A program made the position numbers and the translations under genes. Shown piece by piece: positions 1,227 through 61,972 of a stretch of 64,000 nucleotides of DNA. Every line of letters starts with the position of its first letter. Position 1 is the first letter of the stretch. The stretch is from contig JAKSJD010000008.1 in the NCBI GenBank assembly GCA_024398435.1, positions 1-64,000 of the forward strand. Reading direction: 5' to 3'. Source of the stretch: Bacteroidaceae bacterium. Its GTDB lineage: Bacteria > Bacteroidota > Bacteroidia > Bacteroidales > Bacteroidaceae. The notes under the pieces are model-generated. The model searched no databases, was not told the origin of the DNA, and was given only the letters and a program-made list of their open reading frames with translations.

Positions 1227-1314
1227 AATCGTACCAAACGCTGAGTACAATCGTACCAAACCCGAAGTACAATCGTACCAAACGTTGAGTACAATTGTAC
1301 CAAACATTAAGTAC
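1227..1314. repeat. Repeat array A1: four 22-base units
   Basis: Four direct units start at 1227, 1249, 1271 and 1293, each of the form AATCGTACCAAAC-nnnn-AGTAC, exactly 22 bases, with variation mainly in the four or five bases after CAAAC. The array is bounded by a perfect 10-base inverted repeat, TAAATCGTAC at 1225-1234 and GTACGATTTA at 1311-1320. It lies in the 448-base divergent region between the lipoprotein promoter and the 1460 gene. A reverse-oriented relative is at 39700-39787. Confidence 0.9.
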
Positions 1315-1388
1315 GATTTATTTTGCCTCGTGTTTGATAAAATTGTTATGGAGAAACTGACTTTTTAAGCAATAACTTTTTTGTTTGT

Positions 1389-1419
1389 TTTGACATGTGA
1401 GAATTATTTTGTACCTTTG
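1389..1419 (+). promoter_or_regulatory. Promoter of the TlpA-like gene
   Basis: TTTG at 1389-1392 and TACCTTTG at 1412-1419 are 19 bases apart, a close match to the Bacteroidota consensus. The start codon at 1460 leaves a leader of roughly 35 bases. Confidence 0.7.
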
Positions 1420-1459
1420 CGTCCGCTTAGCAAACATAGAATAATTACTTCTAACTAAA

Positions 1460-3133
1460 ATGAAACGAACAATCACATCTATCATCATGATGCTTAGCAT
1501 CTTATGCTGTGCAGCCAAAAAGAAACCAATCGTGCCCGACACCCTTCGCAACTATCCATCCGGAGCTATCGACGAATACTGCTTCAGAGGCGGAAAGGCA
1601 GTGGTCAAAGGTACAATCCTAAATGCTCCAAGTGCAGAATACCCAACCATTGGAGTTGTTGCAAAAGACGTGTTCAAGAATTTGGATGTGACGGATGTTA
1701 TTACGATTGATTCCACCGGACATTTCTGTAAGGAGCTTTACTTGCCTCATTCTCAGTATGTCTATCTGAAACCATTGGGTTCGGCTTTCTTGGCTGTGGG
1801 CGACACTCTCGAAATGATTGTCAACATGGATGCACCTACTCGAGAGGAAGGAGTCAGGTTTGATGGCACCGGAGCCACTGGCGAAGTGAACAGAATTTGG
1901 CCTTTGCTTCAACGTCAATATGGAGTGGCAGCCGATGAAAGGATGGTCGATGCAGAATTGAGCAAGGAAGAAATACTTTCTTGGCGTGATAAGTTGGTGG
2001 GAATGATTGATAATGCCGCTCGTGCAATCGATGCTGATACAATCAGTTTGCTGCAAGGTTGTTCGGCATTTGCAACGGACATTCTGAAGACAAATATGCT
2101 TGTCAATCCATCTTTCTGCTTGGCTTATGGTGCAGACAGATGTATGATGCAAGATAGAATCAATAACTCAGAACCAAGATTCACTCGCAAGGAATACTTC
2201 AATTATCTTTCACAACGTGAGAAATATCTGCTCAACAATCCTTTGGTCGTTATGGCAGAAGATGGCGACTCGTATGTCAACAGTATCGAATTCAACTACC
2301 TCTGCGCCTATCATTTCATGACAAACAGCACCCCAAGAGGGTATTTTAATTATTATAGCAACGAGCTAAAGCGATACGTAATCGATTATGAGTTGTCTCA
2401 CGACTTCGATCAAGTGCTCCATCAGCAGATGATCGACTATGAGAAGGAACAAAGCAAGGGAAAGGACAACCAACTATTTGCCCGTTCGCGCTATTACGAA
2501 GAGGCAACCAAACGGATGATGTCGGATTATGGTCTCAAGGAATGCGGATTCATGATGCAGTTGTGTCTGCTTCATCATGTATTGATTGGAGTTGGCCGAG
2601 AATTGCCAAACGAGGCGATTGATAGGGTTTCGAACCATTATGCAGCCGCAACACCGATGCTTACCGACCGAGCAATCAGTTATCATGCAATTGATGCCTA
2701 TCGCAAATTGGCAATGGAAGCAGCCGGCTCAATTTCGAAGGAAGAACCACAAACTGTTGGCGACAGCATCTTCCATTCTATAATTGACCAATACAAGGGC
2801 AATGTTCTGTTCGTCGATTTCTGGGGACTTTCATGTGGCCCTTGCCGTTCGGGAATGCTCGCACAAAGAGAAATCGTGGAACATTTCAAGGATGCCCCAG
2901 TCAAGTTCATCTATATAAGTGAGGACAACCCAGAAGATAGTGAAGTGTTCACCTACAAAAACAATATCCGGGGAGAGCACGTCTATGTAAGCCACGACCA
3001 ATGGAACTACCTTTCAGCCCATTTTCAATTCAATGGAATTCCATTCTCTTTGCTCTTGGACAAAAAGGGAAATATCGTAGCTCACGATTCGTTCCCAAAT
3101 ATCAAGGCACGAATCGAAGACTTGCTGAAATAG
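1460..3133 (+). CDS. TlpA-family thiol-disulfide protein with long N-terminal domain
   Basis: A 557-residue exported protein. An N-terminal hydrophobic segment ending near ILCCAA suggests secretion or lipid attachment. Residues about 40-430 form a domain of the kind fused to TlpA/ResA-like thioredoxins in Bacteroidota (a beta-rich start with GTILNAPSAEYPTIG, then a helical part). The C-terminal 115 residues are thioredoxin-like with the active site WGLSCGPC (Cys459 and Cys462). TlpA-type proteins reduce disulfides in the periplasm; the client is not evident. It has its own promoter and is followed by cdd on the opposite strand. Confidence 0.85.
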   Translation: MKRTITSIIMMLSILCCAAKKKPIVPDTLRNYPSGAIDEYCFRGGKAVVKGTILNAPSAEYPTIGVVAKDVFKNLDVTDVITIDSTGHFCKELYLPHSQYVYLKPLGSAFLAVGDTLEMIVNMDAPTREEGVRFDGTGATGEVNRIWPLLQRQYGVAADERMVDAELSKEEILSWRDKLVGMIDNAARAIDADTISLLQGCSAFATDILKTNMLVNPSFCLAYGADRCMMQDRINNSEPRFTRKEYFNYLSQREKYLLNNPLVVMAEDGDSYVNSIEFNYLCAYHFMTNSTPRGYFNYYSNELKRYVIDYELSHDFDQVLHQQMIDYEKEQSKGKDNQLFARSRYYEEATKRMMSDYGLKECGFMMQLCLLHHVLIGVGRELPNEAIDRVSNHYAAATPMLTDRAISYHAIDAYRKLAMEAAGSISKEEPQTVGDSIFHSIIDQYKGNVLFVDFWGLSCGPCRSGMLAQREIVEHFKDAPVKFIYISEDNPEDSEVFTYKNNIRGEHVYVSHDQWNYLSAHFQFNGIPFSLLLDKKGNIVAHDSFPNIKARIEDLLK

Positions 3134-3151
3134 CGATAATAGGATAGGGAA

Positions 3152-3631
3152 TCAGAGAAAATCGCTGTCGAAACTCAATGGCAGAAGGTCGGCAGCCGAA
3201 TCAAGGCAATAGGTTCCTTCCTTTCCGTAAAGCAAAACACGCATTGGTTTGCCGAAACGTTGCTCGGTTTCTACCAACACTTGACGGCAAGCTCCACAAG
3301 GAGGACAAGGACGGGAAGTGAAATCACCACTCGAATCTCTCGCGCACACGCATAAAATATTAATAGGTGTATCGGGGTGGAGAGAGTTGGCATAGAATAC
3401 AGTTGTTCGCTCGGCACATAAGCCGGAAGGGTAGGCACAATTCTCCTGATTGCTTCCCGACATGATTTCACCATTATCGAGCAATACGGCAGCTCCTACA
3501 TGGAAATGGCTGTAAGGAGCATAACTGTTTTTGGTTGCTTCCTTGGCTGCCTCAAGCAATTGCTTTTCTTTATCGCTGAGCTCTTCTTCTTGCTTAAGAA
3601 CTATGCGGGTGCGAACTTCTATTTCTTTCAT
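3152..3631 (-). CDS. cdd: Cytidine deaminase
   Basis: A 159-residue homotetrameric-type cytidine deaminase, converting cytidine and deoxycytidine to uridine forms in pyrimidine salvage. The zinc site is intact: Cys72-Ala-Glu74 (CAERT) and the PCGAC pair Cys112/Cys115; the SHFHVGAAV and SNQENCAYPSG substrate segments are also present. I choose the ATG at 3631 rather than the upstream in-frame TTG at 3661 because TACTTTTG, a -7-type box, lies on the minus strand just at that TTG and would put the transcript start downstream of it. The gene converges with the TlpA-like gene, 18 bases apart. Confidence 0.95.
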   Translation of the reverse strand: MKEIEVRTRIVLKQEEELSDKEKQLLEAAKEATKNSYAPYSHFHVGAAVLLDNGEIMSGSNQENCAYPSGLCAERTTVFYANSLHPDTPINILCVCARDSSGDFTSRPCPPCGACRQVLVETEQRFGKPMRVLLYGKEGTYCLDSAADLLPLSFDSDFL

Positions 3632-3750
3632 TTTCTCAGGGTTTATTGTTTTCACTTGCAAAAGTACGAAAAATAATGTAATAGCAATAAAATATTAACA
3701 TTATTCTTCAAAAAATCGCTTTCTTGTGTTCAACTTACTACATATTTTAT

Positions 3751-3758
3751 TATCTTTG
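3751..3758 (+). promoter_or_regulatory. -7 box almost touching the GH73 start codon
   Basis: TATCTTTG ends four bases before the ATG at 3763. If transcription starts about seven bases beyond the box, the message would be leaderless or nearly so. No good TTTG sits 20 bases upstream, so the promoter call rests on the -7 box. Confidence 0.5.
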
Positions 3759-3762
3759 CATC

Positions 3763-4680
3763 ATGATTAGAAGATTATCGTTACTGCTTTTGCTGATTGT
3801 GCCAACAATGCTTATGGCACAAACCAGGAATAAGGCATTTGAAGATTATATAGAGAAATACAAGGATATTGCCATCGAGCAAATGGAACTCCACCGCATC
3901 CCTGCAAGTATCACACTGGCACAGGGATTGCTCGAAAGCGGAGCCGGCAACAGCGAGTTGGCAAAGAAAAGCAACAACCACTTCGGCATCAAGTGCGGCA
4001 GCAATTGGTTCGGCCCAACAACATCCCACTTTGATGATGGTCGCAACGAATGTTTTCGTGTTTATGCCACAGTGAAGGAAAGCTATGAGGACCATTCCCA
4101 GTTCCTCAAGAAAGAAAGATACGGAAGGCTGTTCCGCCTGAGCCCTGTAGATTACAAGGGATGGGCAAGAGGTTTGAAATCGTGCGGATATGCAACAAGT
4201 CCTACTTATGCTGACCGCCTGATAAATCTTATCGAACTCTACGAACTCAACCGCTTCGACCGCGACCCAGATGCTCCACAGCCAGTGTATGTTCCGGAGC
4301 CAGAACCAGTGTATGAGGTAATCGAACTCAACACCCACACTATCAAGAACAATAACGACGTTCTCTGCATTGTGGCAAATTCGAAGGACACTTGGGAAGG
4401 CTTGTCAAAAGAACTTGCAATCTCAAAGCGCAAGCTTCAAAAGTTTAACGAAGCAGACGACAATGTGGCAATCCATGCTGGCGACTTCATCTACATTCAA
4501 AAGAAAAAGTCGAAAGCTGCAAAGCAGTACGGAAAAGATTATTGGCATCACGTAGCACAAGGCGAGTCGATGTACTCAATTGCCCAACTCTATGCAATCA
4601 ATCTAAAGAACTTGTACAAACTGAACTTTAAGGATGCGGATTATACACCTGTACAGGGTGATTTGCTCCGGGTAAGATAA
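3763..4680 (+). CDS. GH73 glucosaminidase with two LysM domains
   Basis: A 305-residue exported peptidoglycan hydrolase. A signal peptide spans residues 1-19 (ending LMAQ). Residues about 25-165 are a glucosaminidase (GH73) domain with the likely catalytic Glu58 in QGLLESGAGNS, plus NNHFGIKC and the Y-rich SYEDHSQFL segment. Two LysM-like wall-binding modules follow (about 200-255 and 260-305, the second beginning HHVAQGESMYSIAQLY). It would cut the glycan strand of the wall, as in daughter-cell separation or remodelling. The signal peptide fixes the start at 3763, only four bases after the TATCTTTG box, so the mRNA may have almost no leader. Confidence 0.9.
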   Translation: MIRRLSLLLLLIVPTMLMAQTRNKAFEDYIEKYKDIAIEQMELHRIPASITLAQGLLESGAGNSELAKKSNNHFGIKCGSNWFGPTTSHFDDGRNECFRVYATVKESYEDHSQFLKKERYGRLFRLSPVDYKGWARGLKSCGYATSPTYADRLINLIELYELNRFDRDPDAPQPVYVPEPEPVYEVIELNTHTIKNNNDVLCIVANSKDTWEGLSKELAISKRKLQKFNEADDNVAIHAGDFIYIQKKKSKAAKQYGKDYWHHVAQGESMYSIAQLYAINLKNLYKLNFKDADYTPVQGDLLRVR

Positions 4681-4730
4681 CAGATATAGTATTAAACAAA
4701 CTAGTATTAACAACTTAAACAAACATTATT

Positions 4731-5282
4731 ATGAGAAGAACAAGTGTAAAGGTTGTATGCATGCTCATGGCAGCAAGCATTCTCTGCTCAAGCTGTATTG
4801 GTTCGTTCAAGACATTCAATAAGCTTGCAAAATGGAACCAGTCAATCAGTTCTAAGTTCATCAATGAATTGGTATTCATCTGCTTCCACATTATCCCAGT
4901 TTATGAAATTGCTTATCTCGCAGATATCTTCATCTTCAACTCAATCGAGTTCTGGGGCGGTGATGCAGGTTTCGCAAAGGTTGGTGAAACAAAGCATATG
5001 AAGGGTAGCAATGGTGACATGTTCGCTGTTACAACTACTGCAACTGGTTATAAGATCATCGACGAAACTCGCAATTGCGAATGCCAGCTCGTATTCAACA
5101 AGAAGAATAAGACTTGGAATGCTGTTGTTGATGGCACTTCTTACCAGCTCATGACTATGAACGAAGATGGTTCTGTAACTCTCAACATCGGTGGCGCTAA
5201 CTTCACAACTATGCCAAATGCTGCTGCAGTTGAAATGGCTCAGAACATTTCTGCAGGTACAACTTATCAGTATGTTGACTAA
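4731..5282 (+). CDS. DUF3332-family lipoprotein
   Basis: A 183-residue protein whose N-terminus ends in a lipobox (ILCSSC, Cys at about 22) followed by IGSFKTFNKLAKWN, and then a hydrophobic stretch with IIPVYEIAYLADIFIFNSIEFW, the hallmark layout of DUF3332 proteins. The C-terminal 100 residues are soluble and beta-rich. The role of the family is unknown. It sits 50 bases after the GH73 gene on the same strand and may be co-transcribed. Confidence 0.8.
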   Translation: MRRTSVKVVCMLMAASILCSSCIGSFKTFNKLAKWNQSISSKFINELVFICFHIIPVYEIAYLADIFIFNSIEFWGGDAGFAKVGETKHMKGSNGDMFAVTTTATGYKIIDETRNCECQLVFNKKNKTWNAVVDGTSYQLMTMNEDGSVTLNIGGANFTTMPNAAAVEMAQNISAGTTYQYVD

Positions 5283-5433
5283 TTCAATAGCCAACTATTG
5301 ATATAATAAACGATTCAGCATACCTGCTCAATGCAAGTGTGCTGAATTGCGTTTAATACATTATCCTACAATCATTACAACCAGTATCGTATAGACATTA
5401 TTAATAATTCTATAATAACTAAAACTTAATAGT

Positions 5434-5949
5434 ATGAAGAAAAGATTAACTTCTATTGCTACAGCTTTGTTGTTTGCTGTAAGTCTTGTAGCACAACCAA
5501 ATCAACCACAGGCTCCTGCCGATCGTACTCCTCAACTCGAATACGTCCTGACACTTCATGTTTCGCTCGATGCTGCATATAGTGTGGGCCAAACTCCTCA
5601 TGGCCAGCGTCAGGTTATTCCAATCACTGGTGGAACATTCGAAGGCCCAAACATCAAGGGCACAATCATTCCTGGAGGTGCCGACTATCAGTTGAGCGAC
5701 AGAGCAAGTGGACGTACAGATGTAGAAGCTATCTACAGTATCAAGACAGATGATGGCGTTAACATCCATGTTCGCAACAACGGAATCATCAGCATGAGTC
5801 AGGGCGGCTTCTATTTCTTCACGACTCCAAAGTTTGAAGCACCATCTGACAGCAAGTATGCATGGCTCAACAATGCCATCTATGTATGTACTCCTGATTT
5901 CGGAGGTCAGGGTGGAGGCATCACTCTTAAGGTTTGGAAAGTAAAGTAA
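5434..5949 (+). CDS. Exported DUF3237 (UPF0311) protein
   Basis: A 171-residue protein with a signal peptide (residues 1-20, ending SLVAQ). The mature part matches the DUF3237/UPF0311 pattern: LEYVLTLHVSLD, a PITGGTFEGP turn, IIPGGADYQL, and IKTDDGVNIHVRNNGI. Family members are small beta-barrel proteins of unsettled function. It stands alone between the DUF3332 gene (151 bases upstream) and a shared terminator with rng. Confidence 0.85.
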   Translation: MKKRLTSIATALLFAVSLVAQPNQPQAPADRTPQLEYVLTLHVSLDAAYSVGQTPHGQRQVIPITGGTFEGPNIKGTIIPGGADYQLSDRASGRTDVEAIYSIKTDDGVNIHVRNNGIISMSQGGFYFFTTPKFEAPSDSKYAWLNNAIYVCTPDFGGQGGGITLKVWKVK

Positions 5950-5968
5950 TAAATATGTGAAACAAATA

Positions 5969-6006
5969 AAAAAGCTCTCGATACATGATGATATCGGGAG
6001 CTTTTC
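5969..6006. terminator. Bidirectional terminator between DUF3237 gene and rng
   Basis: A 14-base stem (AAAAGCTCTCGATA with TATCGGGAGCTTTT) around a short loop, with A run on one side and T run on the other, suits both convergent genes. Confidence 0.75.
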
Positions 6007-6056
6007 TGTTTTTGTTGTTGATAATCTGCTTATGAGCGTAGTTATCGTTTCATGTT

Positions 6057-7631: not shown

Positions 7632-7651
7632 TTCCTCATATGTTGAGAGAT

Positions 7652-7741
7652 TTATTTGCTCTTATGACGATTCTTTCTTAGTCTTTTCTTACGCTTGTGT
7701 GTAGAAATCTTGTGTCTTTTTTTCTTCTTACCGTTTGGCAT
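7652..7741 (-). CDS. 29-residue AURKAIP1/COX24 (mS38)-like ribosomal protein
   Basis: A very short, extremely basic protein, MPNGKKKKRHKISTHKRKKR plus nine more residues, 18 of 29 Lys/Arg/His-type. Small proteins of this pattern in Bacteroidota carry the AURKAIP1/COX24 domain related to mitochondrial mS38 and mycobacterial bS22, which sit in the small ribosomal subunit. The start ATG at 7741 and stop at 7652-7654 are clear. It lies between the HU-like gene and rng, 20 bases ahead of the latter. It is too short for most gene-length cut-offs. Confidence 0.88.
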   Translation of the reverse strand: MPNGKKKKRHKISTHKRKKRLRKNRHKSK

Positions 7742-10649: not shown

Positions 10650-10655
10650 TCTCGA

Positions 10656-11324: not shown

Positions 11325-11492
11325 CGAAAAAATGTAGAACAAAGAATGTTTATTGTATAATAATTTCATTTTTTAACACTCCCTTAACTCTTTTCGCGCG
11401 TAAATTATAATATATGTGTCGAAACGGGAATGAAATTGTTGTGGGACGATTATAGAATCGTTTTCTTGTTTCCAAAGCAATCTTTTGTCTTT

Positions 11493-11645
11493 CTCCTTGC
11501 TCAAAAACCTATTTCTTATGGCTCCAAAACTATAATTATGTACATTGCGGTAAATAATTATGTCAATATCTTTAATAATTATGTACATTATTAATATTAA
11601 TTATGTACAATATTTTAGTTTTGAAGCTATAGAAAAAATAAAATG
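11493..11645. repeat. Repeat module B1: conserved flanks around four 21-22-base units
   Basis: Four units begin TAATTATGT at 11533, 11555, 11576 and 11598 (lengths 22, 21, 22, 22; three contain GTAC, the 21-base one has GTCA). A 40-base leader (CTCCTTGCTC ... CCAAAACTA) and a trailer ending CTATAGAAA...AAATG are shared with module B2 at 61820-61972, and both modules are 153 bases long. This occupies most of the 491-base gap between 11286 and 11776, which holds no gene. Confidence 0.88.
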
Positions 11646-11688
11646 AAACAATAGAAATGGTAAAATACTTCTTGCTTCGGGATAAAAT

Positions 11689-11723
11689 AAGCCGCTGCCT
11701 TCGAACGAAAAGACAGCGGTTTA
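11689..11723 (-). terminator. Terminator of the aldo/keto reductase gene
   Basis: A 12-base stem with two G-U pairs (around GCCGCTG and CAGCGGT), with a T-rich stretch on the minus strand, 54 bases beyond the reductase stop. Confidence 0.55.
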
Positions 11724-25616: not shown

Positions 25617-25679
25617 CACTTTGCAATTTGCCTATATTTGCCAAAATCTTTATAAATATTAAAAATATTTATAAAAAAG

Positions 25680-25711
25680 TTTGGTAAATTCAAAAATTTT
25701 TCGTAACTTTG
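25680..25711 (+). promoter_or_regulatory. Consensus promoter pointing into the tamL-like gene, antisense
   Basis: TTTG at 25680-25683 and TAACTTTG at 25704-25711, exactly 20 bases apart on the plus strand. Downstream lie repeat array C3, an ATG at 25722 and then the antisense strand of the 25842-28166 gene. No plus-strand gene that I trust follows. Confidence 0.6.
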
Positions 25712-25726
25712 CATCGTGTTTATGAA

Positions 25727-25792
25727 AAACATTGCAAGCCCAAACCCCATACGTCGCGAAACAAGGGCCCAAACATCGCAAGAAATGAGGTT
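25727..25792. repeat. Repeat array C3: three degenerate 22-base units
   Basis: Units at 25727, 25749 and 25771 share ACATTGCAAG / ACGTCGCGAA / ACATCGCAAG at the same phase; the last continues AAATGAGGTTGAG as in arrays C1 and C2. It ends in GAGAGTCGCGGTC, like the GTCGCGAACAGCGG end of C2. Confidence 0.65.
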
Positions 25793-25841
25793 GAGAGTCG
25801 CGGTCTTTTTATATGCACCGACTAAGAACCTGAAAAACGGT

Positions 25842-28166
25842 TTAGAATGGAAGTCCGACTGCGAAGTGGAGGGCGAAGTCGCGATCGAAATTCGGATGAG
25901 CAATAGGGTAGTGATTGCGACCGGTGTGAGCAGGGTCGATAGCTTTCATACCAGCATCGAATCGGATGATGAAGAAGTCGAGGTTCATACGAAGTCCGAT
26001 ACCGTAAGCAAAGGCAATCTGACGATAGAAATCGTTGAAGTGGAATGCACCGCCAGGTTGGTCCTTATAGTCGCGAATGGTCCAGATGTTGCCGGCATCG
26101 ACGAATATGGCTCCGTTGAGTTTCCAGAAGAGGAATGCACGGTATTCAAGGCTGAAGTCGAGTTTGATATCGCCCGACTGATTGATGAAGTTGATACCCT
26201 TGTCCTGTCCGTTGTATTTACCTGGTCCGAGTGTGCGAACCGACCATCCTCTGACACTGTTGGCACCACCGGCAAAATATCGTTTCTCAAATGGCAGAAT
26301 CTTGCTGTTGCCATAAGGATAGGCGATGCCGAATGCTGCATGAAGAGCGAGTGAGTTGTTCTTGTCGATACGGATACTCTTTGCGAAGTCGAGGTCGGCC
26401 TTAGCATACTGAGCATAGGCAATTCCGCAGAACGTATGCTGTCCGTCTTCATTCGTCTTCGTGTCGATAGCTTTGGTGAGTGCACCAAGTACATTGCCTG
26501 ATGTCTCTATGTTGGCTCTGAAAGTATATGCGTTCTTGCCGTAGGTAGTGGTCGTAGCCGTACCCAAGGAGTTGTAGGTGTAGGTGTAGCCAACCTTCGT
26601 GATGAGAAGATTCTCGTAGTTGTATTTGAGGATGGCATTGGTCTTGCCGAGCGAGTCGAGATATTGCTCCTTGAACGTATTGGATATCCAAGGCATATAC
26701 ACGTAGTTCACTTCGAGAAGGTCGACACGATGGGTGGCTTTCTGGTTGAGGTCGGCCCAACGATAGCGCCAGGCAGCTGTGAGGACCCGTCGGTTGAACT
26801 CTGGACGATTCTGAAGATTATATTGAAGCGATATTTCGGATGTGGCTGAGTGGATGGCACCGAACTCCTTACTTACGATTGGCAGAAGCAATCCTGGGAA
26901 TCCAAGCGACATCTCTCCGCCCAGTTCGATGTAGTTGTGACCCTCGTATCCTTCAAGTCCTGTGATAGCTTCGTATGCACCGCGAAGTTTGACGGTGAAC
27001 GTCTCCGAACCATGGAACAGATTCTTGTGCTGGAAAGATGTTGATGCAGCTACTCCGAGGTCGCCGGCAGAATTGGTTCCTTCCAAATCGAAACTGAGCG
27101 ACTTGGCACGGGCATGATTGACTATAATGTCACAATCGAGCAAGTTGTTTCCATTCGTATCTGTCGTTTCATTCAGACGGATATTCGAGTAGCTGATTGC
27201 CTGAAGGCGTGTGAGATAGCGATATGTGAGTTTTTGATTGTCCTCGTTGAAATAGTCGCCGGAATGGAGTAGGGTGTTGGATGTAAGCAGGCGTGGACGG
27301 AATCTCAGGTCGTCGGTGTGGAAAATATTCTTGCCTCTGTATTCCAGCTTCTGCAATTTGGTCGTGTCGTTTTCACCACTGGCATCAACGAGATAATTCA
27401 CGTTACCAATCTTGTAGCGCTTATGTGGTTCTGGATTGGAACGTCCATCTTCAAGATGAAGTCGGATGTTCATCGTGAGGTCGATTCTTGAACTGCCAGC
27501 AACCGTGTCGGCAATGAATGTGATGTAGTCTTTGTTGAATTTATAGTAGCCAATACTGCGGAGATTGGCTGTGATTCGGCTTCGCTCTTCGTTCAGTCGG
27601 TTGATATTGAACGGCATGCCAGCACGAAGAAGCGATGCGATAGTGTCGTCGCCACAAATCAGACGTTCAAGCTCAGGGTCGAGAACCACTCGCTTTATGC
27701 TGTTGATTGAATATCTCTGTCCGGGATCAACTTGGTATGTCAAGGAGAGTTTCTTTCCATCTACTTTCTGAATCTGACTGACATTCGCATGCATGTAGCC
27801 TTCGTTGTAGAGCACTTTCTCGATGTCCAATTTCGTTTGCTCTGCCTTGATGCTGTCGTAAATTACAGGGTCTTCCCCAATCTTCTGAAACAATCGTGTT
27901 GCCCAGTTGGTAGAGTCAGTGCCCGACAGACAATAAATCTTCAGAGGAATCTTTGCACCAAACCATTTGCTGTTTGGATTCTGAAGAACATAATCGCTGA
28001 GGAAATAGTTCTTTGTAGCCTTATCGTTTGTGGAAACAACATTCACATCTTTTAGGAACAGTTCGTCATCGCTGATAAAGCGCTCTACACTGCATGAAAC
28101 CAACAATGGCAGCGCAATCGTGATGACGCTGATATATATTAATAATATGTGAATGCTTTTCCTCAT
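25842..28166 (-). CDS. TamL-like outer-membrane assembly lipoprotein (BamA/TamA family)
   Basis: A 774-residue protein. The ATG at 28166 is preferred to the in-frame TTG at 28169. A lipobox (LLVSC, Cys about 25) marks it as a lipoprotein, which is the Bacteroidota TamL feature. POTRA-like repeats occupy about 30-330, followed by a 16-strand Omp85 barrel with the conserved RYFAGGANSVRGW segment; the chain ends in FAVGLPF with the expected C-terminal Phe. Such proteins help assemble outer-membrane proteins, usually with TamB; no tamB is in the window. The gene is 44 bases after the RNA methyltransferase. Confidence 0.88.
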   Translation of the reverse strand: MRKSIHILLIYISVITIALPLLVSCSVERFISDDELFLKDVNVVSTNDKATKNYFLSDYVLQNPNSKWFGAKIPLKIYCLSGTDSTNWATRLFQKIGEDPVIYDSIKAEQTKLDIEKVLYNEGYMHANVSQIQKVDGKKLSLTYQVDPGQRYSINSIKRVVLDPELERLICGDDTIASLLRAGMPFNINRLNEERSRITANLRSIGYYKFNKDYITFIADTVAGSSRIDLTMNIRLHLEDGRSNPEPHKRYKIGNVNYLVDASGENDTTKLQKLEYRGKNIFHTDDLRFRPRLLTSNTLLHSGDYFNEDNQKLTYRYLTRLQAISYSNIRLNETTDTNGNNLLDCDIIVNHARAKSLSFDLEGTNSAGDLGVAASTSFQHKNLFHGSETFTVKLRGAYEAITGLEGYEGHNYIELGGEMSLGFPGLLLPIVSKEFGAIHSATSEISLQYNLQNRPEFNRRVLTAAWRYRWADLNQKATHRVDLLEVNYVYMPWISNTFKEQYLDSLGKTNAILKYNYENLLITKVGYTYTYNSLGTATTTTYGKNAYTFRANIETSGNVLGALTKAIDTKTNEDGQHTFCGIAYAQYAKADLDFAKSIRIDKNNSLALHAAFGIAYPYGNSKILPFEKRYFAGGANSVRGWSVRTLGPGKYNGQDKGINFINQSGDIKLDFSLEYRAFLFWKLNGAIFVDAGNIWTIRDYKDQPGGAFHFNDFYRQIAFAYGIGLRMNLDFFIIRFDAGMKAIDPAHTGRNHYPIAHPNFDRDFALHFAVGLPF

Positions 28167-28213
28167 CAAATCATGTACAATGTACCAAGAACAATGGTGT
28201 ATTATTATCTCTT

Positions 28214-33647: not shown

Positions 33648-33713
33648 AAACATTGCAAGAAATGACCTTGAGTTTAGCAAGAAAATGGGTCGAGTTTAGC
33701 AAGAAATGACCTC
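33648..33713. repeat. Repeat array C1: three 22-base units
   Basis: Units at 33648, 33670 and 33692: (AAACATT or GAGTTTA)GCAAGAAA followed by TGACCTT, ATGGGTC or TGACCTC. It ends GCGAACCGCT. A weaker unit may precede it (33626-33647, with ACATCGAA in phase). It lies between pgk and nth. Confidence 0.85.
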
Positions 33714-33759
33714 GCGAACCGCTATCATTTTTTCGTATGTTTATATGCTTCTGAAACTA

Positions 33760-39485: not shown

Positions 39486-39559
39486 AATTTATTCAAATAG
39501 TTTATCTTTGCCTACTCTTTGTTGAGGTTTTCGGCACCCCCTCTGAATTAAATCGGCTG

Positions 39560-39567: not shown

Positions 39568-39699
39568 AGTGTTTTTGTGATAGGTCGGTTCGTATATTTA
39601 GATTATTTAAGTTTTTGGCGATTTGTGTTTCTTTTTGTTAAAATAATGATTTTGTCGCACATCTTGCTCTAAAAGTCGGATTCTATACGGCAATTAATT

Positions 39700-39787
39700 G
39701 TACTCAGGGTTTGGTACGATTGTACTTCGGGTTTGGTACGATTGTACTCAACGTTTGGTACGATTGTACTCAACGTTTGGTACGATT
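39700..39787. repeat. Repeat array A2: four 22-base units, reverse orientation
   Basis: Units at 39700, 39722, 39744 and 39766 are inverse complements of the A1 unit (GTACTCAACGTTTGGTACGATT form). The right end is GTACGATTTA, as in A1. Two of the units are identical. It lies in the 433-base gap between the small barrel gene and the OB-fold lipoprotein gene; nothing else is in that gap but the promoter and terminator listed. Confidence 0.9.
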
Positions 39788-47386: not shown

Positions 47387-47455
47387 GCACCGAAATCCCA
47401 CTCCCTTATATATTATATAATAATGTGTAGGAGGAGACTTCGGAATGGGCAAAAA

Positions 47456-47521
47456 AAGTTTAGCGAGAAAAAGGGTCGAGTTTAGCGAGAAATGACCTTG
47501 AGTTTAGCGAGAAATGAGGTC
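47456..47521. repeat. Repeat array C2: three 22-base units
   Basis: Units at 47456, 47478 and 47500 share GTTTAGCGAGAAA; the units end AAGGGTC, TGACCTT and TGAGGTC. It ends GCGAACAGCGG. Same family as C1 with GCGAG in place of GCAAG. It lies between the EEP gene and the dockerin gene. Confidence 0.88.
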
Positions 47522-47609
47522 GCGAACAGCGGTTCGTAAACAGACACTCATATAGCCCTTGAAAATTGATAAAAAACAAAACAATATAATAACTAAAAAC
47601 AAAAACAGT

Positions 47610-56600: not shown

Positions 56601-58056
56601 TAACAGAGGCGACAGAAAGCGTCATCCTTATCAGGTATCATTCATTAATGGCAATTGTGTACAGATTGATGCAGCAACTCGAGGATTGGGTAATAACAGC
56701 TGTGGCCCTGATGTCCTTGACAAGTACGAACTGAAGGCAAAGCGAATGGTGTTCAACTTCGTTCTTATGCCAATGAATGGAACTCTTACAGATGCTCAAC
56801 TCGTTGAGAAAGCTCGTTTTGCAAGTCCTCAGTGTGCTCCTGTTAATATTGTCGCAGAAAAGGGAGTCGTCACTCTCACATCTTCTACTCCAGGTTCAAC
56901 AATCTATTACAGTACAGATGGTGGTGAAACATATAAGCAATATACAACCAAGTTCAGTTTCAAGTCGGGAGGTACAATTATGGCTTACTCCACTTCTGAC
57001 GGAATGGCAAAGAGTATGACTGTAACTATGGAGGTTCCAATGTATATTGATAAGACGACTTGGACAGTCTACAGTTATGACAGTCAGCAAGGTGGTGGTG
57101 AAGCCGTGACAAATGCAATTGATGGTAATCCTAATACTATCTGGCATACAAACTATGGCTCAACCGGAACTTCACATCCACACGAAATCGTTGTTGATAT
57201 GAAGAAAACCTATAACGTAACAGCATTCGTATATCAAGGACGTTCAGATGGTAGCAACGGACGAGTAAAGGAATACGAAGTCTATTTCTCAAACAATCCT
57301 AAGGTATGGGGCGCTCCAGATTTGAAGGGCACATTCGAAAATAGTGGTGCAGAACAAGTAGTTAAGTTGACAAAACCTAAAGCAGCACGCTATTTCCGTA
57401 TGATTGCAAGGAGTGATCATAGTAACAATATCTGGACATCAGCTGCAGAAGTGGGTATTCAGGCAGAAGAAACAACTGACGCTCAAACCGATCCTGGCAC
57501 CCCCCCCAGGACAGCGGCTTCCTACTTTATAAGGGAAGCCAGGAGTGGACTCTATCTTCACTATAATGTAAACGACTTTGATGGCGACTTTTGCCTTGGC
57601 GAACTCGATACAGAAGACAAAGGTTATCGTTTTACGTTCACTCAACAGTCGGGTTTTACATCTTACTATAAGATAAAGAACCAAACAAAATACCTTGCAA
57701 AAGGTGATGAATCTTGGAGAATCGTTGGTGGAACTTCATCTCAGTCGACTGGAACAAATGGTCTTTTCCAACTTGAGGCAAAGAATGATGGATGGCAGTT
57801 GCGTGCTGTATGGATGGGAACAAATGAGTATGTAGGCGTTGACTCTCGCAATGTAGGTTCCTATATCTATGCCAACAAATCAACAGCAGCATTGTTCTAC
57901 ATTGAGAGTGTGAGCGAAGTGCTTGCCATTGATGGAGTGGAAATGGATGCTAATGATGATGGCGAGGTCTATGATATCTATGGCAGAAAGATGCCAAATG
58001 CTCCACTTCCTCGAGGCATTTATGTCAAAGGAGGAAAGAAGATTCTTGTGAAATAA
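53626..58056 (+). CDS. GH2 beta-galactosidase with CBM32-like, lectin-like and sorting domains
   Basis: A 1476-residue exported glycosidase; ATG at 53626 gives the signal peptide (residues 1-22, SAFAQ), and the longer frame crosses the promoter. It follows LacZ: sugar-binding N-domain, immunoglobulin-like domains, TIM barrel with acid/base Glu486 (WSYGNES) and nucleophile Glu555 (QCENTHAMGNS, where LacZ has CEYAHAMGNS), GEFIWDWKDQG, and the small-chain domain. Extras follow: a chitobiase-C-like module (about 1080-1135), an F5/8-type CBM32-like module (about 1140-1280), a ricin/lectin-like module (about 1300-1430) and the tail VYDIYGRKM...LPRGIYVKGGKK. It would cleave terminal beta-galactose outside the cell. 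A run of eight C lies in the linker at 57500-57507. Confidence 0.92.
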   Translation: MKKFNYVSKAIVLALLTIPYSAFAQTMKEYDDVYTTSVNREKAHTLSIPFASESAVEANKMEESPYYQSLNGVWKFRWVGDPSKRPTGFEKPTFSVVGWDDIDVPACWQVYGVRHGKSWDKPLYCNVSYPFSYDNNTYSVMADRPGWFTYNNNMKNPVGSYRRQFTIPDSWLGRDVYIRFNSMGHGGYVWVNGNFVGYSEDSYLPAEFKITDYLVEGENTLAVQVYRFTSGSFLECQDYWRLTGLMRDVFLWSAPKTQIRDYFATTTLNSTYTSATVKVEADVKGEALSNGSISVKVMDGTSVVAETSAAVTTATKKTLQLTMSNPRLWNAEEPNLYTLVVTLKDGDKVLDVRGNKLGVKQVAVRNDGALTINGKRIIVHGVDRHDFSSVNGRYVSYEETLKDILIMKTLNINAIRTSHYPDNPYFYDICDELGMYVLAEADVECHGNTGLSSVSQFKNAMVERNENHVLWMRNHPCIFMWSYGNESGGGNNFQAVENAIKALDKTRLTHYEGNSTWADVTSTMYASVGSIEGIGRDRQNQANNGQKPKPHVQCENTHAMGNSMGNQREFYNAYEKYPALVGEFIWDWKDQGLQMPVPGDASKTYWAYGGDFGDNPNDGNFCTNGVIFADYTYSAKALNVKKIYQPADFFRRDSLKGIYTIKNKMAFANLDRYAFSYEILEDGIQINKVNLDDISIAGGDSLRLTLGNLLPADAKDGAEYFIRFSAKQKEATAWAEAGYEVASEEIMLRKAINKPIYKSTATTPLTLSQNTTSYIVSGENFTISFSKTNGQLTSYKYNTKNILSGSLKFNAFRVPTDNDGSHSGEWDASGLKDLTVKRGTWTVTEEDDAVVLEITNNYMGTSPTSFTTQMSYRILSDGTVFVNSIIDPAQKDKILPKMGFIFEMPVGYENYTWYGRGPWDNYRDRKESCHIGLYHSTVTDQWTGFVLPQETGNKEDVRFISVTNNDGVGIMVVAPEHMSATVGHWRPKDMYNNRGDRKRHPYQVSFINGNCVQIDAATRGLGNNSCGPDVLDKYELKAKRMVFNFVLMPMNGTLTDAQLVEKARFASPQCAPVNIVAEKGVVTLTSSTPGSTIYYSTDGGETYKQYTTKFSFKSGGTIMAYSTSDGMAKSMTVTMEVPMYIDKTTWTVYSYDSQQGGGEAVTNAIDGNPNTIWHTNYGSTGTSHPHEIVVDMKKTYNVTAFVYQGRSDGSNGRVKEYEVYFSNNPKVWGAPDLKGTFENSGAEQVVKLTKPKAARYFRMIARSDHSNNIWTSAAEVGIQAEETTDAQTDPGTPPRTAASYFIREARSGLYLHYNVNDFDGDFCLGELDTEDKGYRFTFTQQSGFTSYYKIKNQTKYLAKGDESWRIVGGTSSQSTGTNGLFQLEAKNDGWQLRAVWMGTNEYVGVDSRNVGSYIYANKSTAALFYIESVSEVLAIDGVEMDANDDGEVYDIYGRKMPNAPLPRGIYVKGGKKILVK

Positions 58057-58082
58057 TTAGGTTCAAACGCTTTTATATAACA

Positions 58083-58114
58083 AAGTCCCTTAGCCAAAGT
58101 TGGTTGAGGGACTT
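58083..58114. terminator. Bidirectional terminator between GH2 and DMT genes
   Basis: Stem AAGTCCCT / AGGGACTT with an inner GCCAA/TTGGT pair, shared by two genes that converge. Confidence 0.75.
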
Positions 58115-58120
58115 GTTTGT

Positions 58121-59074
58121 TTATCTTGAACCGATAAAGAGGAACACCATTGAAAGCAGAACGAGCAATAGGTCGAATACCTTTGCCTTTAGGTTCTTTT
58201 CCTTGAAAATCATTGCACCAAACAGGAATGAAACGATAACGCTTCCTCTTCGAATCATGCTTACGATACTAATCATTGCATCGTCTTGGCTCAATGCATA
58301 GAAATATACAAAGTCGGCTATTGATAGAGATACAGATATCAGTGGGATACACCAACTCCAATGAAAATGGGATGGGGTATAAGACGATGAGTTGTTGATA
58401 GAAGATGACTTGAAGAGTTTTGTTGTGATTGTCTTCCATTCTGTTATGATGAGTACGATTCCCATCATGGCCACTTGATAGATGTTGAACCACGATTGAA
58501 CGGCCATCTTGTCCAATCCAATTTGTTCTGGGTCGAGAAGGTAGCGGTCGTACAAAGCACTCAATGCTCCAAATATATTGGCAAGCAATACACATACAAT
58601 CCATTTGTTGTGTTTGAAGTCGATTCCCTCGCGCTTTCCGCTTCGGCTCATAATATAGAACGAGATGATAGCTATGATTACACCAATCCATTGCCAAATG
58701 TTCAAGTGTTCGCCAAGGAATGTGAGTGCTCCAATCAGTACCATCACAGGTCGGGTGGCATTGATAGGGCCAACGATTGTGATTGGAAGATTCTTCATTC
58801 CGAGATAACCGAACACCCATGATGTGAGTACGATAACGGATTTGAGAATGATGTATTTGTGGCCATCCCATCCATACGAATGAGTGTAGAATATTGAATC
58901 GCTATCAAGCCAACCTTCCTTTGATGCAATGATGAAAGGAAGGAATATGATTGAAGAGAACAAAACGTTTAGGAACAACACTGGAACGACCGCGTTGTCC
59001 TTTAACGACTTCTTTTTGAATACATCATAGAATCCAAGGAAGAATGCTGATGTGAATGCTAATATTAACCACAT
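58121..59074 (-). CDS. DMT-superfamily (EamA-like) transporter
   Basis: A 317-residue polytopic protein with ten predicted helices in two EamA-like halves (for example GPINATRPVMVLIGALTFLGE in the first and RRGSVIVSFLFGAMIFKEKNL in the second, the typical ends of each repeat). The soluble link at about 218-232 is Ser/Thr-rich. Substrate unknown; relatives carry metabolites or drugs. Its upstream bases 59086-59100 hold ATGTACAATGTAC, a word also found before the TamL-like gene. Confidence 0.85.
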   Translation of the reverse strand: MWLILAFTSAFFLGFYDVFKKKSLKDNAVVPVLFLNVLFSSIIFLPFIIASKEGWLDSDSIFYTHSYGWDGHKYIILKSVIVLTSWVFGYLGMKNLPITIVGPINATRPVMVLIGALTFLGEHLNIWQWIGVIIAIISFYIMSRSGKREGIDFKHNKWIVCVLLANIFGALSALYDRYLLDPEQIGLDKMAVQSWFNIYQVAMMGIVLIITEWKTITTKLFKSSSINNSSSYTPSHFHWSWCIPLISVSLSIADFVYFYALSQDDAMISIVSMIRRGSVIVSFLFGAMIFKEKNLKAKVFDLLLVLLSMVFLFIGSR

Positions 59075-59125
59075 ATATCGTATATATGTACAATGTACAA
59101 TTACTTCTAAAACAATCTATTTACA

Positions 59126-61693
59126 TTACAGCAATATTCCCCACATGAGGTTCATCACCCATCTGTCCTTCAAGTGGTTGGAGAAAGTGTGAACATAATC
59201 ACAATTGGCTCCGACGAAATATTTCTCTTTGCTGATATGATTTATTGTGATGCCTCCGCCACATTCCGGTTTCCATTTCTTGTTTTCCGTGATAGGGGTG
59301 AGACCATCCTTCTGCATGTGGTTGAGGTATCTACCTCCTCCAAAGGCCCGTATGCCAAGTCGGCTACTGGCTGAAGTGAGGAAAGAATACTTGATTCCGG
59401 CATCGGCATGATAGGTTTCAAGTGCTGTTCCGTTGGAGATATGGCAGAATGCTGTTCGTCCCATCACGTCGAATGCGATGTTTGGGTTGATGAAGTGGCT
59501 GTATTCGAGGCCTGATGTGAAAGTCGTACTGATATCAAGGTCGCCTGTACCACCAAATTCTACACCGCTTACAAGACTGAAACTTGTAGGGCGGGCATTG
59601 TATTTAAGAGTTCGCTCCACATCGGCCATTGTCATGCGAGGTCTGTTGATTCCGTCGCGGCCAAAGATTTGGTCTGTCAGGAAGTAAGCAAAGTTTGTAC
59701 ATACACAACCGATTCCTGCTCCCATGTAAATATCGTTCACCCAATGTTCATTGTGGCGAAGACGGAAATATTGAGTGGCTGTTGCTGTTGCATAACCTCC
59801 TACACTTATCCAAGGGCTTATATATCCATATTCGCGATGAAGGATTGTGGCACTGGCAAAAGCCATAGTTACATGTCCGGAAGGCATACTGTTGTTGTCG
59901 GTTCCGTTAGGTCTTTGTTCGTCGACCAATGATTTTACGGCTGTTCCGACTCCATAGGAGAGGCCCAAGGCCAAAGCATTGGCAACGAACATTCTCTTTG
60001 TCTTGCTCGTTGATTCCACTCCTAGGGCTTTCAATCCCCATGCAACTCCAAGAGGAGCATAAACAAGTCCATTATCCACAAGGTCGTAATCCTTCTTCTT
60101 GAAGTTGCCCGAGCATCTGTCACGGAAGTCTTTTTCGCGGAAAGTGTTGATTGTTCCTCGGATAAGATTGTTGATTCCATCAGTATGGAACGACATTTCG
60201 TGTTTGAGCAGAGCCTCTTCATAATCGTCGACAACAGCCTGTGCCTTTTGTTCCGTATCCTTTTCCTTCATGATTTGCTCGAGTTCGGCCATGTAGGTAG
60301 AGTCGAGTTCTTCGTAGATTACATTATTCTGAGCTGAAGCGAAACTTATTGAACCTACGAACAAAACCACAGCCAATGCGGCTTTTTTAGCCACAGCCAA
60401 GAGGGCATTTCTTCTTGTCTTCGCCCATTTGATTGATAGGTAAATGGTGCGAACAGCCAAATGAACGAAATAGGCAATATAGATGGCCTGAATGCCGAAC
60501 ATTGGTTGGCAAACGATGTAACCAACGACAAATCCAAGGGCAGCAAAGAGCATACAATCACGAACTTGTCGGCCGGCAGTGGCACCAATGAAGATTCCGT
60601 CCCACATGAAAGCGGCACAACTGACCAAAGGCATTGCGATGAGCCATCCGAGGAATGATCGCGAACCTTCGATGCATACAGGGTCGGTGGTGATGAGAGC
60701 AACTGTAGCTTCTCCGCTTATTGCATAGATTGCAGTGAAGATAATGCCGATTCCGAGACACCAAATGAAGAGTAAGCGAACGGCTTTGTTGAGTTTTGGC
60801 TCGTTTTGTTCCCCGATAAATCGTCCGACAAGGGCTTCTCCTGCATAGGCAAAGCCATCGATGAAATAGCTGAATACCATGAAGAGTTTCATCATTATTG
60901 CTCCAACTGCCAACGGACCATCACCATAACGAGAGGTTAGGGCAGTGAAACCGACGTAAACTACCATGAATCCGAGCGAACGAAGCATAAGGTTGCCGTT
61001 GAGGGCAAAGAGGGCTTTCACGTTCTTCCATTTCACACTTTCCTTCACGCGCATGCGTTTTATATATAATGTGTAGCCCTTCAGCATGAGGCAGATTGCA
61101 ACGATTAGGCCTGTGTATTGAGCGATTACGGTTCCGTAAGCCACGCCAATTGCTCCAAGAGGGGTGTGAACCGCCAACAAGTAGCTTGCAAGCATGTTGA
61201 CTCCATTCACGGTAATGTCGCAAATCATTGGGTTTACTGTGTTTTGCATTCCGATGAACCATCCCTTGAAAGCCATAAGGCTCAATGTAGCAGGTGCTGC
61301 CCAAATGCGGATGAAGAAGTATTGACGGGCAAAGGATTCCACTTCGGCCGAACAAGGCATGAGGAGCATCACGAGGTCGACAAATGCCCAACCGATGAGC
61401 ATCACAAACAGTGCGGCTCCAAAACTTATGCTTATGCTTTGTGAGAAAATATCTGAAATGCCTTGAACGTCTTTTCTTCCGAAGGCCTGAGCCGTCATTC
61501 CTCCGGTTCCGACTCGAAGAAAACCGAAATTCCAATAGAGCAAATCGAACAGCATCGTACCAACGGCAATGCCTCCGATTGCTGACGAATCGCTTATATG
61601 ACCTGCAATTGCCACATCCACCAAACCCACGAGTGGAACCGTGAGATTGGCCAGTATGCTCGGAACAGCCAGTTGCAGGATTCGTTTGTTCAT
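59126..61693 (-). CDS. Fusion of MATE transporter and PAP2 phosphatase with C-terminal barrel-like part
   Basis: An 855-residue protein from the ATG at 61693, just after the -7 box. Residues 1-430 are a DinF-type MATE transporter (LAVPSILANLTVPLVGLVD). At about 432-450 a signal-peptide-like segment appears (LAVVLFVGSISFASAQ). Residues about 450-680 are a PAP2 acid phosphatase with all three motifs: KSLVDEQRP, PSGH (His607) and RHNEHWVND. The last 180 residues alternate like a small beta-barrel and include YFVGANCDY. PAP2 acts on undecaprenyl or lipid phosphates. The two halves are normally separate proteins and no stop codon lies between them. Confidence 0.82.
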   Translation of the reverse strand: MNKRILQLAVPSILANLTVPLVGLVDVAIAGHISDSSAIGGIAVGTMLFDLLYWNFGFLRVGTGGMTAQAFGRKDVQGISDIFSQSISISFGAALFVMLIGWAFVDLVMLLMPCSAEVESFARQYFFIRIWAAPATLSLMAFKGWFIGMQNTVNPMICDITVNGVNMLASYLLAVHTPLGAIGVAYGTVIAQYTGLIVAICLMLKGYTLYIKRMRVKESVKWKNVKALFALNGNLMLRSLGFMVVYVGFTALTSRYGDGPLAVGAIMMKLFMVFSYFIDGFAYAGEALVGRFIGEQNEPKLNKAVRLLFIWCLGIGIIFTAIYAISGEATVALITTDPVCIEGSRSFLGWLIAMPLVSCAAFMWDGIFIGATAGRQVRDCMLFAALGFVVGYIVCQPMFGIQAIYIAYFVHLAVRTIYLSIKWAKTRRNALLAVAKKAALAVVLFVGSISFASAQNNVIYEELDSTYMAELEQIMKEKDTEQKAQAVVDDYEEALLKHEMSFHTDGINNLIRGTINTFREKDFRDRCSGNFKKKDYDLVDNGLVYAPLGVAWGLKALGVESTSKTKRMFVANALALGLSYGVGTAVKSLVDEQRPNGTDNNSMPSGHVTMAFASATILHREYGYISPWISVGGYATATATQYFRLRHNEHWVNDIYMGAGIGCVCTNFAYFLTDQIFGRDGINRPRMTMADVERTLKYNARPTSFSLVSGVEFGGTGDLDISTTFTSGLEYSHFINPNIAFDVMGRTAFCHISNGTALETYHADAGIKYSFLTSASSRLGIRAFGGGRYLNHMQKDGLTPITENKKWKPECGGGITINHISKEKYFVGANCDYVHTFSNHLKDRWVMNLMWGILL

Positions 61694-61719
61694 TTTGTCG
61701 GATGTTGTGATTTCGGGTG

Positions 61720-61727
61720 CAAAGTTA
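61720..61727 (-). promoter_or_regulatory. -7 box of the MATE-PAP2 gene
   Basis: TAACTTTG on the minus strand, 27 bases before the start. It places the transcript start downstream of the longer open frame and supports the ATG at 61693. Confidence 0.6.
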
Positions 61728-61819
61728 CGAAAAAAATGCATAATGCTGATACTTTAGTGCGATGAAATCAATCCAGAATGCAGAATTATTTTCTTTATGC
61801 CTTGCATAAAAATGTCAAA

Positions 61820-61972
61820 CTCCTTGCTCTAAAACCTAAAACTTAAGGCTTCAAAACTATAATTATGTACATAACGTATATTAATTATGTACAATATTAT
61901 TAATAATTATGTCAATATTTTTATTAATTATGTACATGATTTTACTTTTGTTCCTATAGAAATAGGGAAATG
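61820..61972. repeat. Repeat module B2: conserved flanks around four 21-22-base units
   Basis: Units begin TAATTATGT at 61860, 61882, 61904 and 61925 (22, 22, 21 and 22 bases; the 21-base unit has GTCA in place of GTAC). The leader CTCCTTGCTCTAAAACC...CAAAACTA and the trailer CTATAGAAATAGGGAAATG match module B1. The gap 61742-62193 holds no gene. Confidence 0.88.

What the first reader, a model, noticed from the sequence alone, without database searches (positions are those of the whole stretch)
1227..61972. Seven intergenic arrays with a common 22-base period, in three sequence families
At 1227, 11533, 25727, 33648, 39700, 47456 and 61860 three or four tandem units recur with a period of 22 bases (21 for the two units with GTCA). 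The unit sequences fall into three families that share little sequence but share unit length, copy number of three or four, and position between genes. Twenty-two bases is about two helical turns, so each unit would offer the same DNA face. This fits binding arrays for a dimeric protein, or a set of related minisatellite-like mobile elements (compare the repeat-containing BrickBuilt MITEs described in Porphyromonas gingivalis, recalled from memory). No gene in the window explains them.
Basis: partly seen in the sequence, partly recalled or inferred. Interest (0 to 1): 0.78.

Follow-up and report, generated by a model that had tools for sequence, protein, structure and literature searches.

The report
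Rewritable 22-base repeat arrays between genes
Gut and mouth Bacteroidales carry many short DNA arrays between their genes whose repeat length (22 bases) and mirror-like layout persist from species to species while the sequence itself is rewritten, which points to a little-described class of DNA element that seems to be read as double-stranded DNA.

Summary
The arrays are real. Six of the seven are 22-bp tandem arrays by Tandem Repeats Finder; the one at 25727 is a diverged member with relatives elsewhere in the genome. All three families are dispersed in the host genome (13, 28 and at least 27 places).

The phenomenon is much wider than the window. In 80 named relatives 22 is the commonest noncoding tandem period (65 arrays; 20 at 21 bp, 7 at 23), with unrelated units in different species; 60 control loci gave one. 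Named strains of oral Prevotella and of Parabacteroides distasonis, another family, have it too.

In the best-sampled family, X, 18 of 22 positions are nearly fixed within a genome (1 change in 1,044), beside hypervariable dinucleotides that avoid pairing; other families are looser. No G-U bias is seen, so constraint looks DNA-level. Arrays are gained, lost or swapped at gene boundaries; no target duplication and no RAYT in the incomplete host genome.

Best reading: dispersed extragenic arrays of dyad sites for an unidentified oligomeric DNA-binding protein, REP/BrickBuilt-like in look, not shown to be members. The protein and the means of spread are unknown.

The parts
1227..1314 (+). Family A array, four 22-bp units (framework GTACCAAAC....GTAC), between divergent genes
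   Evidence: TRF; sequence; 13 genomic places; unit profile
11455..11693 (+). Family B element, approximate ends: 22-phased inverted arms around the core
   Evidence: conservation over 20-21 copies falls to background outside about this span
11532..11617 (+). Family B core, four units (AATTATGTACA...), second unit 21 bp with GTCA
   Evidence: TRF
25727..25803 (+). Diverged family C-like array just past the stop of the Omp85 gene 25842-28169 (minus strand); promoter-like TAACTTTGC on its left (motif recalled)
   Evidence: not called by TRF; relatives; gene
33648..33726 (+). Family C array (GCAAGAAATGACCTCGAGTTTA) between nth and pgk, A-run on the left and T-run on the right
   Evidence: genes
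39697..39787 (-). Family A array, four units, opposite strand
47457..47527 (+). Family C array, three units, after the 46259-47386 gene
61859..61944 (+). Family B core, four units, the GTCA unit in third place, between divergent genes
61790..62020 (+). Approximate whole family B element with arms
   Evidence: by eye from the aligned print of B copies

Best explanation
These are members of a Bacteroidales class of dispersed extragenic elements built from about 22-bp units. Each unit is a DNA framework with dyad symmetry and a few free positions, repeated about three or four times, and in the families looked at closely flanked by inverted, 22-phased arms. Shown here: the dispersal, the period, the excess of dyads, a nearly fixed framework with hypervariable, pairing-averse positions in family X (pairing aversion also at one junction of family A), and gain, loss or swap at gene boundaries. 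Inferred: that the framework is read as duplex DNA by a symmetric, oligomerising DNA-binding protein that sits on one face of the helix every two turns, and that copies spread and are homogenised as whole cassettes or by ectopic recombination between arrays. The sequence would be rewritten between species because protein and sites change together, or because one family replaces another at a site. What the bound protein does (insulation, nucleoid folding, transcription or the element's own spread) is not known.
For: Host genome: families A, B, C at 13, 28 and at least 27 places; B copies keep unit order in most of those printed. Relatives: 65 noncoding 22-bp arrays in 39 of 80 loci against 1 in 60 control loci (27 order, 12 class, 21 phylum) (p 3e-10 against the order set). 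TRF-free lag-22 excess z 5.0 and 5.1 in two relative sets, 1.0 and -0.1 in the two control sets. Family sample: 18 arrays, 10 of 22 genera. Named strains: 8 of 8 noncoding arrays (period 10 or more) in 200 kb of oral Prevotella have period 22, and 13 of 21 in 400 kb of P. distasonis. Dyads: contiguous arms of 6 or more in 17 of 78 consensus units, 2.7 expected. X framework: 1 change in 1,044 fixed positions, 19 arrays of one genome, four positions near random; 0 of 486 in 9 arrays of another. Free positions avoid pairing within a unit: 16 of 116 against 41.1, 5 of 54 against 19.8, 32 of 122 against 45.6; family A junction 6 of 46 against 19.3. No transcript-strand wobble bias: G-T 22, A-C 19; 16 and 9 in one genome, 10 and 14 in another. 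Empty and swapped sites.
Against: No protein was identified. Dyad symmetry is modest over all families: mean 5.6 of 8 pairs against 4.9 shuffled, while arrays of other periods and coding arrays also exceed their shuffles by 0.3-0.4; several of the 17 strong units are one family. In a mixed set of X from other genomes the framework is looser (34 changes in 1,098), and in P. distasonis looser still, partly from misplaced units in my scan. In G420 and G422 the first and last units pair more than shuffles (40 of 72 against 26.1; 28 of 36 against 23.7), as a whole-array hairpin would; the mixed set does not (27 of 76 against 29.1). Real unit order is slightly more palindromic than permuted order over 64 arrays (0.621 against 0.611, p 0.014). 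Family A folds strongly as RNA (z -5.8 and -4.1). With TRF arrays masked the lag-22 excess falls to 2.0 and 3.0 in relatives (0.8 and -0.1 in controls), and lag 21 is raised everywhere. Period could be kept by descent alone. Pairing avoidance in family A may reflect one asymmetric ancestral junction in two orientations.
Confidence: 0.5

Rival explanations
1. Non-autonomous transposable elements (MITE or REPIN type) moved by a transposase that recognises the units; any effect on genes is incidental.
For: Dispersed copies with bursts: family X has 80 matches (both strands counted, apparently a ceiling) in each of two genomes and none in relatives G436 and G437. Empty sites of mostly 5-7 bp opposite 129-173 bp fills. 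Inverted arms.
Against: Conservation is highest in the centre and decays outwards, the reverse of terminal repeats. No target duplication beyond what 5 shuffles give, for 20 X or 22 B copies at word lengths 3-6 and 8, save two X copies against one at length 6. Y1 transposase not found in the host genome (77.6% complete) nor in 11 of 16 array genomes of unknown completeness. Identical cores sit in different arms (by eye). No search for other transposase families was run.
Confidence: 0.25
2. RNA-level elements: transcribed hairpins that stabilise or terminate mRNA ends, REP-like.
For: In relatives arrays lie a median 53 bp from gene 3' ends and 109 from 5' ends; strong RNA folds for A, L128, L188, L147; first and last units pair in G420 and G422; A- and T-runs beside family C and at one swapped site (by eye).
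Against: No steady G-U over A-C excess on the sense strand; local pairing is avoided; four of five B or C inputs fold no better than shuffles (z -0.3 to -0.9; the 61830 one is -4.1); T-runs downstream in only 8 of 47, upstream in 6; family A lies between divergent genes in 10 of 13 places.
Confidence: 0.13
3. Neutral minisatellites: an old 22-bp repeat that slips and diverges; period kept by descent.
For: Units drift in steps at one orthologous site; 21- and 23-bp forms exist.
Against: In X, 18 of 22 positions nearly fixed beside four hypervariable ones, pairing avoidance, and dispersal of whole arrays are not expected from slippage.
Confidence: 0.1
4. Assembly or annotation artefact of metagenome bins.
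For: Most genomes used are metagenome-assembled.
Against: Same pattern in records of named strains: Prevotella oral taxon 299 F0039 and Parabacteroides distasonis TSDC17.2.
Confidence: 0.02

Closest known systems
BrickBuilt of Porphyromonas gingivalis (PMC4596501; abstract, sections 5 and 8, and part 1 of 2 of section 7 seen)
   Same: Intergenic, dispersed (19 elements), tandem units of about two helical turns with no spacer, leader and tail flanks, predicted long stem-loops, same bacterial order
   Different: 23-nt units in 1 to 22.8 copies, P. gingivalis and P. gulae, IS5-like ends in some copies, variable flanking duplications in 3 of 4; here 22 bp, about 3 copies, many species and families, conserved centre, no such ends found
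PINSR, the 188-bp Prevotella intermedia/nigrescens repeat (PMC4755523; abstract, passages and section 3.4 seen)
   Same: Lineage-limited intergenic repeat, 177 and 184 copies in two strains, judged noncoding, no terminal inverted repeats
   Different: Its sequence is only in a figure, so whether it is built of 22-bp units could not be tested; it may be an unrecognised member
REP/REPIN elements with RAYT transposases (PMC3116915; passages seen)
   Same: Extragenic, palindromic, dispersed, sometimes in tandem clusters, diverse between genomes
   Different: Not described as a fixed 22-bp step in the passages seen; host genome has no RAYT match
Heptamer TAACTGA direct repeats (PMC4679880; abstract and passages seen)
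   Same: Many intergenic tandem arrays, five Bacteroidetes among the carriers
   Different: 7-bp units of one fixed sequence, in Maribeggiatoa mostly just ahead of start codons

Membership tests
MITE (incl. BrickBuilt) | Conserved terminal inverted repeats | tested here: not met
   Centre more conserved than ends in B and X; BrickBuilt end sequence at chance level in the window
MITE (incl. BrickBuilt) | Target-site duplication | tested here: not met
   No clear excess over flanks dealt among copies, 20 X and 22 B copies, 5 shuffles each
MITE (incl. BrickBuilt) | Insertion at an otherwise conserved site | tested here: met
   10 of 34 comparable arrays (of 83) have a relative with an empty or nearly empty site, three sites in all; gain and loss are not told apart
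MITE (incl. BrickBuilt) | Parent transposon with the same ends | not tested
   No search for one was run
REP/REPIN | RAYT (Y1_Tnp, PF01797) in the genome | tested here: not met
   0 in the host genome, 12 of 21 in the host-plus-relatives set; 5 of 16 array genomes. Genomes are incomplete
REP/REPIN | Extragenic palindromic dispersed repeat | tested here: met
   one B and one C place fell inside a called ORF
Intrinsic terminator | Hairpin followed by T-run on the transcribed strand | tested here: not met
   8 of 47 codirectional arrays have five Ts within 40 nt downstream, 6 upstream
PINSR | 188-bp consensus | not testable with these tools
   Sequence only in a figure; the record tried is not held
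Known Rfam RNA | Match at gathering score | tested here: not met
   Three matches in the window, two tRNAs and one DUF805b, none at an array

The most novel reading that the evidence does not exclude
A Bacteroidales address system: one fast-evolving, oligomeric DNA-binding protein family (or a few) and its 22-bp dyad arrays co-evolve so quickly that species rewrite the sequence while keeping period, dyad and gene-boundary placement, with the unpaired dinucleotides kept mismatched so that the arrays do not extrude as hairpins.
Probability: 0.2. Interest if true: 0.92.

Novelty: new variant of a known kind. Interest (0 to 1): 0.74.

Why it matters
A repeat whose length and symmetry are conserved but whose sequence is not is hard to see with homology tools, and it may underlie lineage-specific repeats reported one species at a time (BrickBuilt; perhaps PINSR). 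If a protein reads these arrays, it is a genome-wide DNA-organising or regulatory factor of common gut bacteria that is still unknown. Parabacteroides distasonis, a cultured gut species, carries them, so the question is directly testable.

Tried and rejected
Rejected: MITE membership as far as tested; RAYT drive; intrinsic terminators; known RNA families; a regulon of one pathway for family A (26 flanking ORFs, first 60 residues read by eye, names recalled; Pfam was run only on window genes). Restriction to one GTDB family was my working claim after and was overturned by Parabacteroides distasonis.

Led nowhere: exact-pattern scan of genome contigs for family A (0; the tool says the host's own record may be left out); family A in 300 other genomes of the family (0 at E 1e-6, but in the rows shown at most two candidates per genome were scored and even the host gave only 3 matches); B in 16 congeners (0); four viral contigs patterns (0); X in phages (0); B in plasmids (0); P. 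intermedia record not held. Bacteroides finegoldii (50 kb) gave no array and Phocaeicola massiliensis (100 kb) none at 22 but two at 44.

Searches for earlier reports. No listing named a 22-bp array class in Bacteroidales; several listings were capped (15 of 5,406, 10 of 46), and subscription papers are not covered. BrickBuilt's text mentions 22-nt repeats in P. gingivalis W83 without detail.

Count notes. Array counts keep the best-scoring TRF row per place, score at least 50, period 10 or more, less than half inside an ORF of 100 aa or more; the ORF caller is a simple one of mine, so 'coding' arrays (16 at period 22 in the near set, 1 in the class set) are partly false genes. G000 loci were picked for having arrays. 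X copies in G420 are 19 places of about 25, the best-scoring ones, which favours conserved units; the scans behind demanded 13 or 14 matches of 18. In one search the G422 set shrank from 20 to 9 distinct arrays. B alignments use 20-22 of 28 copies, the weaker ones left out. The P. distasonis stretches were partly chosen for holding matches; the 24 rows are 12 sites seen on both strands.

Full report
What is in the window. TRF finds 22-bp arrays at six of the seven places and the units are plain to the eye. Three families: A (1227; 39697 on the other strand), B (11532, 61859) and C (33655, 47457, with a diverged relative at 25727). None lies in an ORF kept by my caller. The 25727 array is not called by TRF, but four longer copies of it lie elsewhere in the genome.

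The host genome. G000 is 2.3 Mb in 32 contigs, 77.6% complete. Family A has 13 places, B 28, C at least 27. Most printed B copies carry the same units in the same order, so whole arrays were copied. Aligned on their cores, 20-21 of the 28 B copies show conservation highest in the core, falling step by step through arms that are themselves 22-phased (lag-22 self-match 0.37-0.38, other lags 0.26-0.32), and ending about 65-80 bp out; the element is about 240 bp. Family A lies between divergent genes in 10 of 13 places; with an expectation of 0.3 the p is 0.0007, and the window's own long gaps are divergent in 2 of 11. B and C are divergent in 11 of 28 and 9 of 27. The genes beside A share no function that I could see (by eye).

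Relatives. The phosphoglycerate kinase neighbourhood of 80 named relatives, mostly gut Bacteroidaceae and Prevotellaceae, was fetched. Their noncoding tandem arrays peak at period 22: 65 arrays, against 20 at 21, 7 at 23, 3 at 20 and 4 at 24. The same method gave 0 in 27 loci from other families of the order, 0 in 12 loci of other orders (one more inside a predicted gene) and 1 in 21 loci from the phylum. Base-matching at lag 22, which needs no repeat finder, agrees: z 5.0 (named relatives), 5.1 (40 loci over 22 genera of the host's family), 1.0 and -0.1 (controls); with TRF arrays masked 2.0, 3.0, 0.8 and -0.1; lag 21 is raised in all sets, controls too (2.5, 2.3), perhaps by unrecognised coding. 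In the 40-locus sample 10 of 22 genera had a 22-bp array. Units differ between species and often within one.

Limits of the lineage. The boundary is not one family. In 200 kb of the Prevotella oral taxon 299 replicon all 8 noncoding arrays of period 10 or more have period 22; one of the four stretches has none. In 400 kb of Parabacteroides distasonis (Tannerellaceae) 13 of 21 do. One of its arrays matches 46 places in 14 records, all of P. distasonis; in the 13 other records the best match covers 36-44% of the query, about the three-unit core. Twelve sites of that family fall in the 400 kb. These are records of named strains, so the arrays are not just a metagenome artefact. Bacteroides finegoldii gave none in 50 kb, Phocaeicola massiliensis two of period 44 in 100 kb.

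Grammar of the units. Contiguous complementary arms of six or more occur in 17 of 78 consensus units, 2.7 expected; some of the 17 belong to one family. A looser score exceeds shuffles by 0.7 of 8 pairs for 22-bp arrays and by 0.3-0.4 for other arrays. The clearest family, X, reads TTGCA-NN-TACATGTA-NN-TGCAA. In 19 arrays (58 units) of one genome the 18 named positions show one change in 1,044, while the four N positions are near random, 72% pyrimidine-purine. In 9 arrays of a second genome there are 0 in 486, in a mixed set of other genomes 34 in 1,098. The N pairs of a unit avoid being complementary: 16 of 116 against 41.1 in shuffles; 5 of 54 against 19.8; mixed set 32 of 122 against 45.6. 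Across unit junctions the figures are 19 of 78 against 27.9, 18 of 36 against 19.2, and 9 of 82 against 29.4. The host's unrelated family A does the same at its junction, 6 of 46 against 19.3, although one asymmetric ancestor in two orientations could also explain that. First and last units of X pair more than shuffles in two genomes but not in the mixed set. The P. distasonis family shows a GTAC centre in A/T arms with variable positions between, but is looser.

DNA or RNA. If a transcript's fold were selected, G-U should outnumber A-C on the sense strand. It does not do so steadily: 22 and 19 over all dyads; in X arrays beside codirectional genes 16 and 9 in one genome, 10 and 14 in the other. 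RNA folds are strong for A and the three relatives tried, weak for four of five B or C inputs. T-runs do not mark a downstream side (8 of 47 against 6 upstream). I read the constraint as acting on duplex DNA.

Turnover. 34 of 83 arrays could be compared with a relative whose flanks align; 28 are aligned across in some relative and 10, at three sites, have a relative where the site is empty or nearly so. At site 1, between two codirectional genes, four species carry X, one carries an unrelated CGCCGCACGCGG array, and five have 6-7 bp; L129 also aligns across but was not printed. At site 2 there are at least four unit families in the same gap, a short remnant in L128, and nothing in two species. 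After one gene end, the ten relatives that I printed, chosen because TRF had a row there, carry arrays of at least three families, several grading into one another. At two array sites of the window, after the Omp85 and nth genes, the congeners L123 and L124 show no array (by eye). X has 80 matches in each of two genomes and none in two relatives. Identical X cores sit in different arms, one copy looking like a chimera of arms (by eye). No target duplication stands out.

Position. Over the relatives the arrays lie a median 53 bp from gene 3' ends and 109 bp from 5' ends, and are scarcer between divergent genes (10 of 73 against 145 of 539 gaps, p 0.014). Family A of the host goes the other way.

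Interpretation. Copying is certain. The near-fixed framework beside free positions argues against neutral minisatellites; the conserved centre, absent duplications and unfound RAYT argue against known MITE or REPIN types; missing wobble bias argues against RNA. That leaves sites for a symmetric, oligomerising DNA-binding protein, placed on one face every two turns, propagated as cassettes. The protein and its purpose are inferred, not found. Literature in reach describes single-lineage relatives (BrickBuilt, PINSR); the listed searches did not show this class. Passages of PMC4060949, a survey of structure-related repeats, gave nothing on 22-bp arrays.

Noticed in passing
window 39509-39544, minus strand: Rfam DUF805b cis-regulatory RNA, about 150 bp from the family A array at 39697.
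   Followed up: no
L091-L095, e.g. window 25640-25740: Diverged family C arrays follow an AT-rich inverted repeat and a promoter-like motif at five places, as if a small RNA began there (motif recalled).
   Followed up: partly
several G000 loci, e.g. window 47400-47430: A recurrent AT-rich string like TATATAATATAATAATGTG, possibly another dispersed repeat (by eye).
   Followed up: no
L134, L140, L144: A similar-looking 21-bp array family (GAAATATATTTCCAAGCCTTT); the two g15 loci had no 22-bp array but five of 21 or 23 bp.
   Followed up: no
L125 9021-9428 and the gap before pgk: Several different short tandem arrays stacked in one intergenic stretch of Candidatus Colivivens caballi.
   Followed up: no
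NZ_OY725748.1, NZ_OY725801.1, OY726023.1 in PLSDB: Records labelled plasmids carry housekeeping genes (pgk, thrS, polA, mutS, leuS) and look like chromosome pieces.
   Followed up: no
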